Source: Lithospermum erythrorhizon
Taxonomy: Eukaryota; Streptophyta; Magnoliopsida; Boraginales; Boraginaceae
Direction: 5' to 3'
NCBI GenBank assembly: GCA_019722365.1
Contig: JADFUC010002276.1
Span: 1 to 64,000, forward strand
Length of the DNA stretch: 64,000 nt
Made by a program: the position numbers and the translations under genes. Shown in pieces: positions 2,632-54,043 of the stretch. The notes under the pieces were generated by a model. That model made no database searches and was not told the DNA's origin. It saw only the letters and a program-made list of their open reading frames with translations. Each line of letters opens with the position of its first letter. Within the stretch, counting starts at the first letter, position 1.

Positions 2632-3513
2632 GAGTTAAGTAGTCAGGGGTATTTGAAGCTGAAGCTCATTGTGAAGCTCTTCAGGGGAACCCAACAGAGG
2701 TTTGACAAATGAATGGCTAAAATCAAACACACCATATTAAAATAGAAGTTATGACCATTATTTACTACTATTATGATCACGGGAATCTTCTTGGGGAAGA
2801 GATCTTGGTCCTTTTGAGCACAAAGAACTTGAAACTCTAAGAGAGGCAGCTTGATTCATCTCTCCAAGCAGATTAGATCACAGGTATTTGTTTCTTTTTA
2901 ATTTATCTTATTTGAGGTATTCTAATTAAAATATTGTTGCGAGTTGAATGATATTCCATGGTAAAAAATTGCAGACACAAGCAATGCTAGATCAGCTCTA
3001 CGAATCTCCAGAGAGTAAGAGACCACTTAATAAAGGGTTTCTTTTTATAACCATGTATTAAGACAGGTTTAATATTTCTAAATAGATTGTCACCATTTTC
3101 AGAAGTTTTGAATATCTTCAGGGGCACTTAGCCACTGAATGAAGCAAACAAGACTCTAAAACAAAGGAGTAGAAGCCCTACTAATGATTTTAATGCAACA
3201 AGTGAGCTGCATTCATTAGGAAACATAATCCTTGTAATAAAATTGTAAGCATCTTTAATTATCTTTTATAGTTATTGGAAGAGGATGAAATTAATCTGCA
3301 GTGGAATCAAATGCTCATGAGGAAATGGTGTATGGTCGGCCGGCGACTCAACCTCATAGTGATGCCTTCTTCCATCCTTTGGAATGTGAACCAACACTAC
3401 AAATGGGGTATGCCCTCTTTTTCCTCTATCAAAAACACAATCAACGCACTGGTATTTCTTGTAGTCTTGTTACTTGTACTGCTTACTTGTTCGTCCCTCT
3501 AAATTTAATATTT

Positions 3514-3553
<40 letters not shown>

Positions 3554-52100: not shown

Positions 52101-54043
52101 TATAAAGAATCCTTTTCAAGCCTTTCTATTCATGGTTTCCCGTACCTGCTTTGGTTCATGTATGCAGTTGTTTCTTAGATCCATTGGTTGGAGGGCTTAG
52201 TAGTTGTAGCCCCAAGACTAGGGAACATGACAACCTAATTAGATGATCATTGTTAAGATAACATTCTAAGATAGTACTTATAGTTTTCTCATATTCCATT
52301 GGTTGGAGGAGTTAGTACTTATATATGACAGCCTAATTAGGTGATCATTCTTGACATAGCTATATAATATACCCATCATATGGCTTATTTTGCCTCTGTT
52401 TAATGGAAATGTTGGGTCCCAGTCATCAAAGCTCTACGACGATAATAAAACCGTGATGCTGCAGGAGTATGCTAGTCGAAACTATAGTCATCCTTGTACT
52501 GATTTCCCAGTGCATTGGCTAAGTGGTGCGATCCTCATTCTTGTTCATATATCCCCTTGGCTTAAATATCCAAGTGCCTGAATAATACAACATTCTCATT
52601 ACACGAGTTTAACCACACCCATGTTTCTGCATCTAATCTTATTGGCTACTGATTTTTTCAATCCACTTCTTGATATCGACACTCCATTCCTTTGTTATTT
52701 TGGAACCACTTTTGTACAACAATTGGAGTGTCATTAGAAACCAATGGAGTGGAAAAAGCATCGACCATCTTATTTTAGTGTATGGACTGCAACCACAATA
52801 CATGATCCTACTTTGTGGTGTCACATTGCTCACTTAGTAATTAAAATATTGAGAGACCTCTAAATTTATATTTAAATCATGCATCTTAAAGAATTGTTAC
52901 AATGGTTTCTCTCGCCTTCAATAATGGATTACTCTTCTCTGGGTGTCACATGGTTAATTGGATGTTCTAAACCCATAAATTTGAGTGTCCATACCACTGG
53001 CTTCTTCCTATAAAGACATTGTTCTGGTGTTGTGGATGCATGAAAGAAATGTGAATTTCAATATACATGTATATACATACATACAACATACCCCAATGCA
53101 TATAAAGAGGCTTCCGTCTAATAAGTGGGTTAAGGGGAGTCAGATAGTACACAGCTTGTCCATGTGATAACATTGAAGCTGTTTCCGAATTAACTCAAGA
53201 GTAAAGTGCAATACTACTTCACATATATATGTATATATATATATTGGTACTATGCATGCATGAAAGAAGTGAGTTAGTATGCTGATGAATTTTAAACTGA
53301 AATTGAAGGAACATATTTTTGCTCAAAGCCTCGTTGATTACTCAATTTCATCACAGATAACTAGGTCTTACTATTATCGTGTCTATTGTTGCATTATATA
53401 CTGTAGAGTTCTCATTCCAGAATGGTTTCATGCAGACACATCTGATGATGGCTGATGTAACGATTCTCAAAGAAAAGGTTTGTCATCTTGATCCCAATTA
53501 TAAAGGACTTATAAGTTAGGTTCCTGATAAATGATATTCATACTTTGTTGGTTTTGTTTATATAGCATGCTATGCAATATGTTCTGCAAATGTATAGACC
53601 AAGCTTTCTCATTAGGCTGTTATACCTACTCAATGTACTCGACTTTGAAACTGTTTATAGTTGTGTATTAGGCTTTAACATTAACTTGGTCTATCATCTT
53701 TTGCATAAGAACTTATATGTTTGAACATCAAAGTAAGAACAAAGTCTTACAAAAACTTGAATAAAAGGGGTTCAAATACCTGAATAGTTTTTTTTTTTAA
53801 TCTTTGTGCAGGAGAAAATGCTCATTGAAGAAAACAGGCTTCTCTCTGAGGAGGTAATTCCAGATCACATTTGCATAATCTTCCAATCGATCTGCTTGTA
53901 TAGTCATGTATACAGATTCAGTATCATTTTGCACATTTTTATATCAAACACAGATAGCTTTGGCCGGAAAAAAGACGGATGAGGGGAACGAGGAGACTGA
54001 TGGCCACCTCAATCAAACACCACCAACTCTAAAGTTATTTTAG
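36235..54043 (+). CDS. FLC-like: FLOWERING LOCUS C-like MIKC MADS-box transcription factor (7 exons)
   Basis: Nuclear DNA-binding repressor family that delays flowering, best known from vernalization control. Exons: 36235-36422, 51029-51107, 51470-51531, 51633-51726, 53436-53477, 53812-53853, 53954-54043. They total 597 nt, all introns are GT-AG and phases match, giving 198 residues (Arabidopsis FLC has 196). The MADS domain (residues 1-61) starts MGRKKLEIKRIESKASR and carries QVTFTKRRNGLIKKAKELS. The I region has LTEIIQRYHTYVELE. The K region has LSRTDLVNLEDQLQGALLE and TRARK, followed by EKMLIEENRLLSEE. The C-terminus ends PPTLKLF, comparable to the FLC end LPVTLPLLN. The MGRKKLEIKRIE start, length and short C-terminal end favour FLC over SVP, SOC1 or AP1 clades. 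Introns are 14606, 362, 101, 1709, 334 and 100 bp. I chose this ATG because it opens the MADS domain. No indel or stop is present in the exons. Confidence 0.88.
36720..37055. repeat. Degenerate short tandem repeat at the start of intron 1
   Basis: Repeated words of the form CAGATTTGTGCAAARTATAA with A-rich spacers, units about 35-45 bp and about six imperfect copies. It begins about 300 bp downstream of exon 1. Confidence 0.55.
38336..38589. repeat. MITE, family M1, copy 2 (in intron 1)
   Basis: Left end TACTCTCTATTTATTAATTT then AAGTGATTGTTTAGACTAAA; right end TTTTTAGTCTAAACAATCAC ... CGGAGGGAGTA. The inverted arms and interior are shared with 30958-31202. Confidence 0.75.
39513..41335. mobile_element. 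Inverted-repeat-bounded element containing an RTE LINE fragment
   Basis: The left arm (about 39513-39585: ATTTGATCACTTATGTTTTG, then ATCACTTTTCTTTCAAAAAT) is the approximate reverse complement of the right arm (about 41265-41335: AATTCAAAACATAAATGATT preceded by TTTTAAAGATGAGTGATCAA). Between them lies LINE-derived sequence. This may be a DNA transposon with long ends that received or captured the LINE. Confidence 0.5.
39950..40990 (+). pseudogene. RTE-type LINE reverse transcriptase remnant (in intron 1)
   Basis: Broken-frame translation gives FVEALKKMKKAKVIGLDNIP followed by IEMWKCFG (family ALKRMKNGKAVGPDNIPIEVWKCLG), VQREVIWKVLGNKEG-CMAYV (family VPREVLWKALEKKGV), KDMYAGVT, SVLSPYLFAL after a frameshift (family SALSPYLF), DNLTRQMQDKVP, and a YMD tail. 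The element is sense to the FLC-like gene. No intact frame remains. Confidence 0.75.
41336..43140. other. Intron 1 DNA without a recognised feature
   Basis: AT-rich to mixed composition. Open frames such as 42471-42752 have no recognised similarity. Two related words ATAAAATCTAGTA occur at about 42807 and 42852, suggesting a small local duplication. Confidence 0.3.
43151..43190. repeat. (TA)n microsatellite
   Basis: About 40 bp of pure TA dinucleotide within intron 1, just upstream of the short LTR retroelement. Confidence 0.9.
43380..46118 (+). mobile_element. Short non-autonomous LTR retroelement in intron 1
   Basis: Direct repeats at about 43380-44111 and 45157-46118 share GGCTTTTTCTTTGAAGAAAA, a TTATAAGTTTATTTATAAAA-like block, CTTATTCTTA-like, GAGTTTATTATAATTCT, GATTTAATTTCCTCATTATT and a terminal CCTAATA/CCTAACA end. 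The first is followed by ATTGGTATCGAAACGG, close to the initiator-Met primer-binding site (TGGTATCAGAGCGG). The internal part is only about 1.0 kb and holds no recognised gag or pol domain, so the element would depend on a partner in trans. The second LTR is interrupted at about 45225-45590. Confidence 0.7.
45225..45590. repeat. Insertion rich in CCGAACCGAA words inside the second LTR
   Basis: The left part has ACCAACCGAACCGACCG and the right part GGTTCGGTTCAAAATACCCC followed by ACCGAACCGAACTGAA. The middle is AT-rich with a TATATATA run. It disrupts LTR alignment with 43440-43500 and resembles non-autonomous hAT-like repeats also hinted at near 31.3 and 61.3 kb. Confidence 0.5.
46119..47867. 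other. Intron 1 DNA without a recognised feature
   Basis: No exon or element found. A short duplicated phrase, roughly AAATCTACGNGTG(C)GTGGTATAACAA, occurs at about 46435 and 46540. The open frame at 47478-47741 has no recognised similarity. Confidence 0.3.
47868..49497. repeat. Tandem array of about 12 units of ~134 bp in intron 1
   Basis: Each unit has the order TTGTTAACCTATCG, GGTTTAAGGTGGATCATAGT, GTATTCACTGATCTGTAGGT, TGGCCCAACGAGAAAAATAA, TGTTCTGAAATGCTTAGAAA and GAGATTAATTA. Unit starts are near 47873, 48002, 48132, 48256, 48387, 48520, 48713, 48842, 48964, 49103, 49237 and 49371, with one truncated or recombined unit near 48578. The last four units are most alike; the first units are more diverged and carry more indels. 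The array ends about 1.5 kb before exon 2. Confidence 0.92.
49581..49678. repeat. Two-copy tandem duplication, unit 49 bp
   Basis: ATCTTTTCTGTGGGAGAGAA followed by TGCAARTCATCCATTGATGG and CTGCCCTGT occurs twice head to tail with one base difference. The near identity implies a recent duplication. Confidence 0.92.
49679..51028. other. 3' end of intron 1, non-coding
   Basis: AT-rich with a pyrimidine-rich approach to the exon 2 acceptor at 51028. No conserved element recognised. Confidence 0.4.
51029..51107 (+). CDS. FLC-like: FLC-like exon 2 (I region)
   Basis: 79 nt, the length usual for MIKC exon 2. Acceptor TTGTCCAG|TTTGAC, donor ACAGAG|GTATGC. Joined to exon 1 it reads SLTEIIQRYHTYVELEAN and continues to ICETE. 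Confidence 0.88.
51470..51531 (+). CDS. FLC-like: FLC-like exon 3
   Basis: 62 nt, the conserved length of this MIKC exon. Acceptor GATAGCAG|CAAGAT, donor GAGAG|GTCCCT. It encodes QDHSKMENFLTVKELLHATE and the first two bases of Arg110. Confidence 0.85.
51633..51726 (+). CDS. FLC-like: FLC-like exon 4 (K domain core)
   Basis: 94 nt. Acceptor CTGCATAG|GCACC, donor AGAAAG|GTTAAT. It encodes HLEDPAQLSRTDLVNLEDQL and QGALLETRARK, with the LxxLExxL heptad pattern of MIKC K domains. Confidence 0.92.
51727..53435 (+). other. Intron 4 of the FLC-like gene (1.7 kb)
   Basis: Canonical GT-AG intron with no exon-like frame. A phrase containing CCATTGGTTGGAGG...TTAGTA and CCTAATTAG(A/G)TGATCATT is duplicated at about 52180-52250 and 52298-52350. 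A (TA)n-like stretch lies at 53223-53243. Confidence 0.6.
53436..53477 (+). CDS. FLC-like: FLC-like exon 5
   Basis: 42 nt, the conserved MIKC size. Acceptor CATGCAG|ACACAT, donor AAAAG|GTTTGT. It encodes THLMMADVTILKEK. Confidence 0.85.
53812..53853 (+). CDS. FLC-like: FLC-like exon 6
   Basis: 42 nt. The acceptor follows a T-rich tract (TTTGTGCAG|GAGAAA), donor GAGGAG|GTAATT. It encodes EKMLIEENRLLSEE, the end of the coiled-coil region. Confidence 0.9.
53954..54043 (+). CDS. FLC-like: FLC-like exon 7 (C-terminal domain and stop)
   Basis: 90 nt including TAG. Acceptor AACACAG|ATAGCT. It encodes IALAGKKTDEGNEETDG and then HLNQTPPTLKLF. The acidic short C-terminus and hydrophobic last residues are like those of FLC proteins. 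Confidence 0.85.
   Translation: MALAGKKTDEGNEETDGHLNQTPPTLKLF

What the first reader, a model, noticed from the sequence alone, without database searches (positions are those of the whole stretch)
2632..54043. SEP3-like and FLC-like MADS genes in tandem on one strand
A recognisable SEP3-type gene (2632-3854) lies upstream of an intact FLC-like gene (36235-54043) in the same orientation with no other gene between. Comparative work on MADS-box evolution proposes that FLC arose in an ancestral SEP-SQUA/FLC tandem. Here the arrangement survives as a relic in which the SEP member has decayed and the spacer has filled with transposons.
Basis: partly seen in the sequence, partly recalled or inferred. 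Interest (0 to 1): 0.82.

Follow-up and report, generated by a model that had tools for sequence, protein, structure and literature searches.

The report
Known SEP3–FLC gene pair, misread decay
Two flowering genes, SEP3 and FLC, sit side by side here as they do in many flowering plants, and the apparent decay of the first one is most likely uncorrected sequencing error at the end of an assembled piece of DNA, not a gene dying in the plant.

Summary
The two loci are real and in the stated order. The plant is Lithospermum erythrorhizon. The FLC-like gene has 7 exons (36235-54043), an open frame of 199 aa, and falls in the FLC clade at 100/99 support. The SEP3-like stretch (2632-3854) is exons 3-8 only, with stops and frameshifts. 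SEP3-FLC linkage is published as ancestral and kept in many angiosperms (passages of PMC9656651, PMC9779283, PMC10338227), so the arrangement is not new.

The "decayed relic" reading is not supported. The window begins at a contig end, and bases 5-30 are an untrimmed Oxford Nanopore adapter. Window 13-26349 is colinear with the end of contig C2249, which starts with the same adapter. C2249 carries this SEP3 intact: 8 exons, 235 aa. The two readings differ by nearly as many indels as substitutions, in patches. SEP3 exons 1-2 lie beyond the contig end. A duplicated copy, contig C392, has intact SEP3 and FLC 5.2 kb apart on one strand. Verdict: known tandem plus assembly artefact. No raw reads were available, and my genome search for further FLC copies did not complete.

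The parts
5..30 (+). Untrimmed Oxford Nanopore ligation adapter (one extra base) at the left end of contig C1315
   Evidence: local alignment score 47 of 56; next best in 264,000 fetched bases 30; adapter letters in print
13..26349 (.). Stretch colinear, in reverse, with C2249 27314-1897: overlap of two contig ends
2632..2699 (+). SEP3 exon 3, error-laden reading (intact at C2249 24651-24584)
2783..2883 (+). SEP3 exon 4, error-laden reading (intact at C2249 24498-24399)
2975..3014 (+). SEP3 exon 5, error-laden reading (intact at C2249 24304-24263)
3122..3167 (+). SEP3 exon 6, error-laden reading (intact at C2249 24160-24119)
3272..3407 (+). SEP3 exon 7, error-laden reading (intact at C2249 24016-23883)
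3796..3854 (+). SEP3 exon 8 with the stop codon, error-laden reading (intact at C2249 23507-23450)
26084..30896 (-). Repeat, LINE-like by its DUF4283 frame (class inferred); right border set only by the last frame seen
36235..36422 (+). FLC-like exon 1 (188 bp, MADS box)
51029..51107 (+). FLC-like exon 2 (79 bp)
51467..51531 (+). FLC-like exon 3 (65 bp; a start at 51470 is also possible)
51633..51726 (+). FLC-like exon 4 (94 bp)
53436..53477 (+). FLC-like exon 5 (42 bp)
53812..53853 (+). FLC-like exon 6 (42 bp)
53954..54043 (+). FLC-like exon 7 (90 bp with stop)

Best explanation
The window holds part of the conserved SEP3-FLC tandem of Lithospermum erythrorhizon. The FLC-like gene is intact. 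The SEP3 exons 3-8 at 2632-3854 are a second, error-laden reading of the SEP3 gene that lies intact on contig C2249: two contigs overlap end to end at this locus and were never merged, and the window's left end is nanopore sequence corrected only in patches. Shown: adapter at both contig starts, a colinear overlap of 26 kb, intact SEP3 on C2249, intact tandem on the duplicated copy C392. Inferred: that C1315 and C2249 are one locus and that the lesions are read errors. Function, from established knowledge of the families and not tested here: SEP3 encodes a MADS-domain partner in floral organ identity complexes; FLC-like genes encode MADS-domain regulators of flowering time or dormancy. No joint function of the pair is shown.
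For: Window base 1 is base 1 of contig C1315. Bases 5-30 are the nanopore adapter with one extra base; C2249 5-30 is the same adapter, 26 of 26 (adapter in print). The last 17 adapter bases occur 1,280 times in the assembly (853 +, 427 -), 0 times for the reversed control; all 71 forward places among the 100 listed lie in the first 35 bases of a contig. Window 13-26349 matches C2249 27314-1897 colinearly. C2249 SEP3 has 8 exons and an open frame of 235 aa; its exons 1-2 fall outside C1315. Indel events per substitution are 1.03, 0.81 and 0.82 in the three main overlap blocks, against 0.22-0.57 in 8 window-C392 alignments of the FLC region and 0.17-0.61 in 6 C2249-C392 alignments. Perfect runs of 50 or more are in excess: 10, 1 and 14 against 3.0, 0.13 and 0.29 expected. 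Exon differences are private to the window 33 times and to C2249 3 times, 3 unresolved; exons differ as much as introns, 39 in 467 and 72 in 972 columns. Published assembly method: R9 nanopore at about 20-fold, DBG2OLC, Pilon polishing (passages of PMC7261806). Another SEP3-like copy, on C1674, is frame-broken in its MADS exon while a protein of the same species from another contig, P0208, reads through there.
Against: No reads were available. Intron differences do not point to the window alone: 26 private to the window, 18 to C2249, 28 unresolved, on a poor alignment with C392. Only a minority of indels lie in runs of three or more of one base (53 of 233, 41 of 300, 271 of 1607). C2249 1-1896 does not continue into the window beyond 26349, though it matches other places and so looks chimeric. 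The window's SEP3 pieces against C392 give 0.84, 0.58 and 0.53 indels per substitution, of which the last two lie within or near the control range. The genome search for a second near-identical FLC did not complete (last try).
Confidence: 0.92

Rival explanations
1. A real recent duplication of the SEP3 segment: C2249 holds the working copy and the window holds a pseudogene decaying beside FLC.
For: Two sequences 90% alike over 1301 bp in one assembly; exon lesions lie in the window copy, 33 against 3; intron differences are spread over both copies, 26 and 18.
Against: The shared stretch runs from one contig end to within 1.9 kb of the other's, and both contigs start with an adapter. Exons differ as much as introns, although one copy would be under selection. 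Neutral sequence of one duplication should differ evenly, but the SEP3 part is about 85-90% alike and the spacer 71-81%. Indels are nearly as many as substitutions.
Confidence: 0.04
2. C1315 and C2249 are two alleles, one with a truly broken SEP3.
For: Colinear overlap.
Against: Reported heterozygosity is 0.39% (passage); the contigs differ by 10-29% in blocks.
Confidence: 0.01
3. C1315 is a wrong join inside the repeat at 26-31 kb, so that SEP3 and FLC are not linked in this window.
For: The overlap with C2249 stops at 26349, 265 bases inside a repeat with relatives in many contigs.
Against: A random join would hardly put SEP3 upstream of FLC on one strand, the order found on C392 and, by gene number and strand, in teak. 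C2249's leftover end matches C1734 and another part of C2249, which puts the odd join in C2249.
Confidence: 0.03

Closest known systems
Ancestral SEP3-FLC (SBP-SEP3-FLC) tandem of angiosperms (Ruelens et al. 2013 not held, nothing seen; described in passages of PMC9656651, PMC9779283, PMC10338227)
   Same: SEP3 and FLC-like gene adjacent; on C392 an SBP gene lies on the SEP3 side too.
   Different: Spacing of 32 kb in the window. The apparent loss of SEP3 is an artefact reading, not a difference in the plant.
Teak TgMADS46 (SEP3) and TgMADS45 (FLC), PMC12940651 (passages)
   Same: Consecutive gene numbers, both on the minus strand, which gives SEP3 upstream of FLC if numbers rise with position.
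   Different: Spacing not seen in the passages read; both are annotated as genes there.
Lithospermum C392 tandem (whole-genome-duplication copy, inferred)
   Same: SEP3 then FLC on one strand, both with open frames.
   Different: 5.2 kb apart, contiguous on one contig. Ks 0.39 (SEP3, against C2249) and 0.54 (FLC, against the window).

Membership tests
FLC clade of MIKC MADS genes | MADS box and K-box | tested here: met
   SRF-TF 77.3 bits (cut-off 26), K-box 39.6 (cut-off 30)
FLC clade of MIKC MADS genes | Groups with FLC-like proteins in a tree with SEP, AP1/FUL and AGL6 | tested here: met
FLC clade of MIKC MADS genes | Seven exons, inferred ancestral lengths 185, 79, 68, 100, 42, 42, 105 (PMC4852290 section 12) | tested here: met
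   Seven exons; lengths 188, 79, 65, 94, 42, 42, 90 differ from 185, 68, 100 and 105 by multiples of three (stop added)
SEP3 (AGL9) clade | Sequence groups with SEP3 proteins | tested here: met
   C2249 and C392 copies fall in the SEP clade (98/95) and the 120 best database hits listed include many named AGL9, MADS4 or SEP3; within SEP the forks are open. The window fragment itself was not put in the tree; it is 90% identical in DNA to C2249
SEP3 (AGL9) clade | Complete MADS, I, K and C regions | tested here: inconclusive
   Exons 3-8 only in the window; exons 1-2 would lie beyond the contig end. Complete on C2249
SEP3 pseudogene | Lesions present in the plant's DNA and not only in one reading | tested here: not met
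   Overlapping contig reads intact; adapter at the contig start; error-like differences. Final proof needs reads
SBP-SEP3-FLC cluster | SEP3 next to FLC, same strand | tested here: met
   Window and C392
SBP-SEP3-FLC cluster | SBP gene near | tested here: inconclusive

The most novel reading that the evidence does not exclude
A real, recent extra copy of SEP3 is being lost next to FLC in Lithospermum, so that one tandem is breaking up while its twin on C392 stays intact.
Probability: 0.04. Interest if true: 0.35.

Novelty: already known. Interest (0 to 1): 0.12.

Why it matters
As biology it adds one species to a known tandem and suggests that both whole-genome-duplication copies of SEP3-FLC were kept in a borage-family plant (Ks 0.39 and 0.54; the genome paper reports a peak near 0.45). 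As a warning it matters more: in this public assembly many contig ends carry nanopore adapters, so an apparent pseudogene near a contig end should be distrusted until reads are checked.

Tried and rejected
Duplication with decay, alleles and a chimeric window contig were weighed and stand as rivals. Polarising intron differences with C392 did not discriminate. Homopolymer bias of the indels was weak. Rfam gave no match at gathering scores for the window and one chance-level match at 8400-9300. Two synteny papers are not held. Whether the window's FLC has a near-identical second copy stayed open, because the search did not complete.
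Full report
What is there. The window is bases 1-64000 of contig C1315 (124,588 bases) of a 366-Mb plant assembly. A protein named Leryth_024953 of Lithospermum erythrorhizon sits on a contig of that same length and matches the window's FLC-like gene at 99% over 69% of it. The FLC-like gene has seven exons (36235-36422, 51029-51107, 51467-51531, 51633-51726, 53436-53477, 53812-53853, 53954-54043), 199 aa and a 14.6-kb first intron. Exon 3 could also start at 51470; the database protein supports 51467. Pfam finds SRF-TF and K-box above cut-off. The exon pattern is that of core-eudicot FLC genes with small differences in multiples of three (PMC4852290, section 12 and passages).

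The SEP3-like stretch at 2632-3854 consists of exons 3-8, several of them broken by stops or frameshifts. tblastn with the two Arabidopsis proteins found no MADS box upstream of it in the window.

Why the decay is not believed. A DNA search of the genome found the same stretch on C2249 (90% identical over 1301 bp) and weaker matches on C392 and C1674. On C2249 the gene is complete: exons of 185, 79, 68, 100, 42, 42, 134 and 58 bp, 235 aa, no inner stop. Its exons 1 and 2 lie at 29639-29455 and 27932-27854, while the window starts near C2249 27314, so they are simply off the end of C1315. Window and C2249 match colinearly from window 13 to 26349, C2249 27314 to 1897.

Window bases 5-30 are the Oxford Nanopore ligation adapter with one extra base; C2249 begins with the same adapter, 26 of 26. 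C392 1-80 has none. I recalled the adapter and then found it in PMC7490894 and PMC9965538 (passages). Its last 17 bases occur 853 times forward and 427 times reverse in the assembly, the reversed control 0 times; all 71 forward places among the 100 listed lie in the first 35 bases of a contig. The published method (PMC7261806, passages) was R9 nanopore at about 20-fold, DBG2OLC, then Pilon with short reads from an unknown accession and with RNA-seq; the passages I read name no read-consensus step.

The differences look like read error. Indel events per substitution are 1.03, 0.81 and 0.82 in the three main overlap blocks, and 0.90 and 0.83 in two further off-diagonal rows. Of 13 window-C392 alignments, 8 in the FLC region give 0.22-0.57; the other five give 0.84, 0.58 and 0.53 (window SEP3), 0.77 (spacer) and 0.65 (59308-59442). 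Six C2249-C392 alignments give 0.17-0.61. Perfect runs of 50 bases or more are in excess in the three blocks: 10, 1 and 14 against 3.0, 0.13 and 0.29. Exons differ as much as introns: 39 events in 467 columns, 72 in 972. In exons 33 are private to the window, 3 to C2249, 3 unresolved; in introns 26, 18 and 28, which does not discriminate. Most indels are not in homopolymer runs. As a sign of such errors elsewhere, the C1674 SEP3-like copy is frame-broken in its MADS exon, while P0208, a protein of the same species from a 19,259-base contig, reads through; that P0208 is the same gene is inferred from the matching exons.

One loose end. C2249 1-1896 does not match the window beyond 26349. The break lies in a repeat that begins near window 26084 (44 matches from 40 of 196 candidates scored). 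C2249 31-1396 matches C1734 at 82% and 1402-1893 matches C2249 344408-344934 at 79%. A chimeric first read in C2249 explains this best; a wrong join in C1315 is the rival.

The twin locus. C392 carries SEP3 (40465-34896, 240 aa) and FLC (29724-19618), both minus strand, 5.2 kb apart. Database protein P0003, from a contig of C392's length, differs from my FLC model by an inserted stretch. Ks is 0.39 for the SEP3 pair and 0.54 for the FLC pair, Ka/Ks 0.08 and 0.34; the genome paper reports a duplication peak near 0.45. An SBP gene lies on C392 at 58952-59446, on the SEP3 side, as in the published SBP-SEP3-FLC cluster (PMC9779283, passages); I found none in C2249 1-70000. Upstream of SEP3, four of the 22 C2249-C392 rows are colinear beyond the gene.

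Phylogeny. In a tree of 28 proteins the window FLC groups with FLC-like proteins (100/99) and with the C392 copy and P0002 (100/99). C2249 and C392 SEP3 pair up (95/96) within the SEP clade (98/95). Forks among SEP3, SEP1 and SEP4 are open, so SEP3 rather than SEP1/2/4 rests on database names and position.

What is known. Passages of PMC9656651, PMC9779283 and PMC10338227 describe SEP3-FLC as an old tandem; the first states that it is kept in many angiosperms and lost in Brassicaceae. Teak lists the two as consecutive genes on one strand (PMC12940651, passages). One search for this tandem in Lithospermum listed 8 of 243 papers, none of which mentions the species; I do not claim that none exists. 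The finding is a known arrangement plus, most likely, an assembly artefact.

Noticed in passing
window 62633-63121: A run of 489 T, probably a sequencing or assembly artefact.
   Followed up: no
whole assembly G000: 1,280 exact copies of a nanopore adapter core, 0 for the reversed control; forward ones listed all sit at contig starts.
   Followed up: yes
window 48556-49497: Tandem array, 134-bp unit, 7.1 copies, inside intron 1 of the FLC-like gene.
   Followed up: no
C1674 about 565055-568020 (L031, L032): A third SEP3-like copy, frame-broken in its MADS exon; no FLC-like exon within the 20 kb fetched.
   Followed up: partly
C392 20788-20853, + strand: An inverted relic resembling FLC exon 2 inside intron 4 of the C392 FLC gene.
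   Followed up: no
P0023 and P0030: A further FLC-like gene of the species, predicted without a normal MADS exon.
   Followed up: no
window 8600-8700: Looks by eye like part of 5S rRNA, as in Cassandra-type elements (recalled); Rfam did not confirm it.
   Followed up: partly
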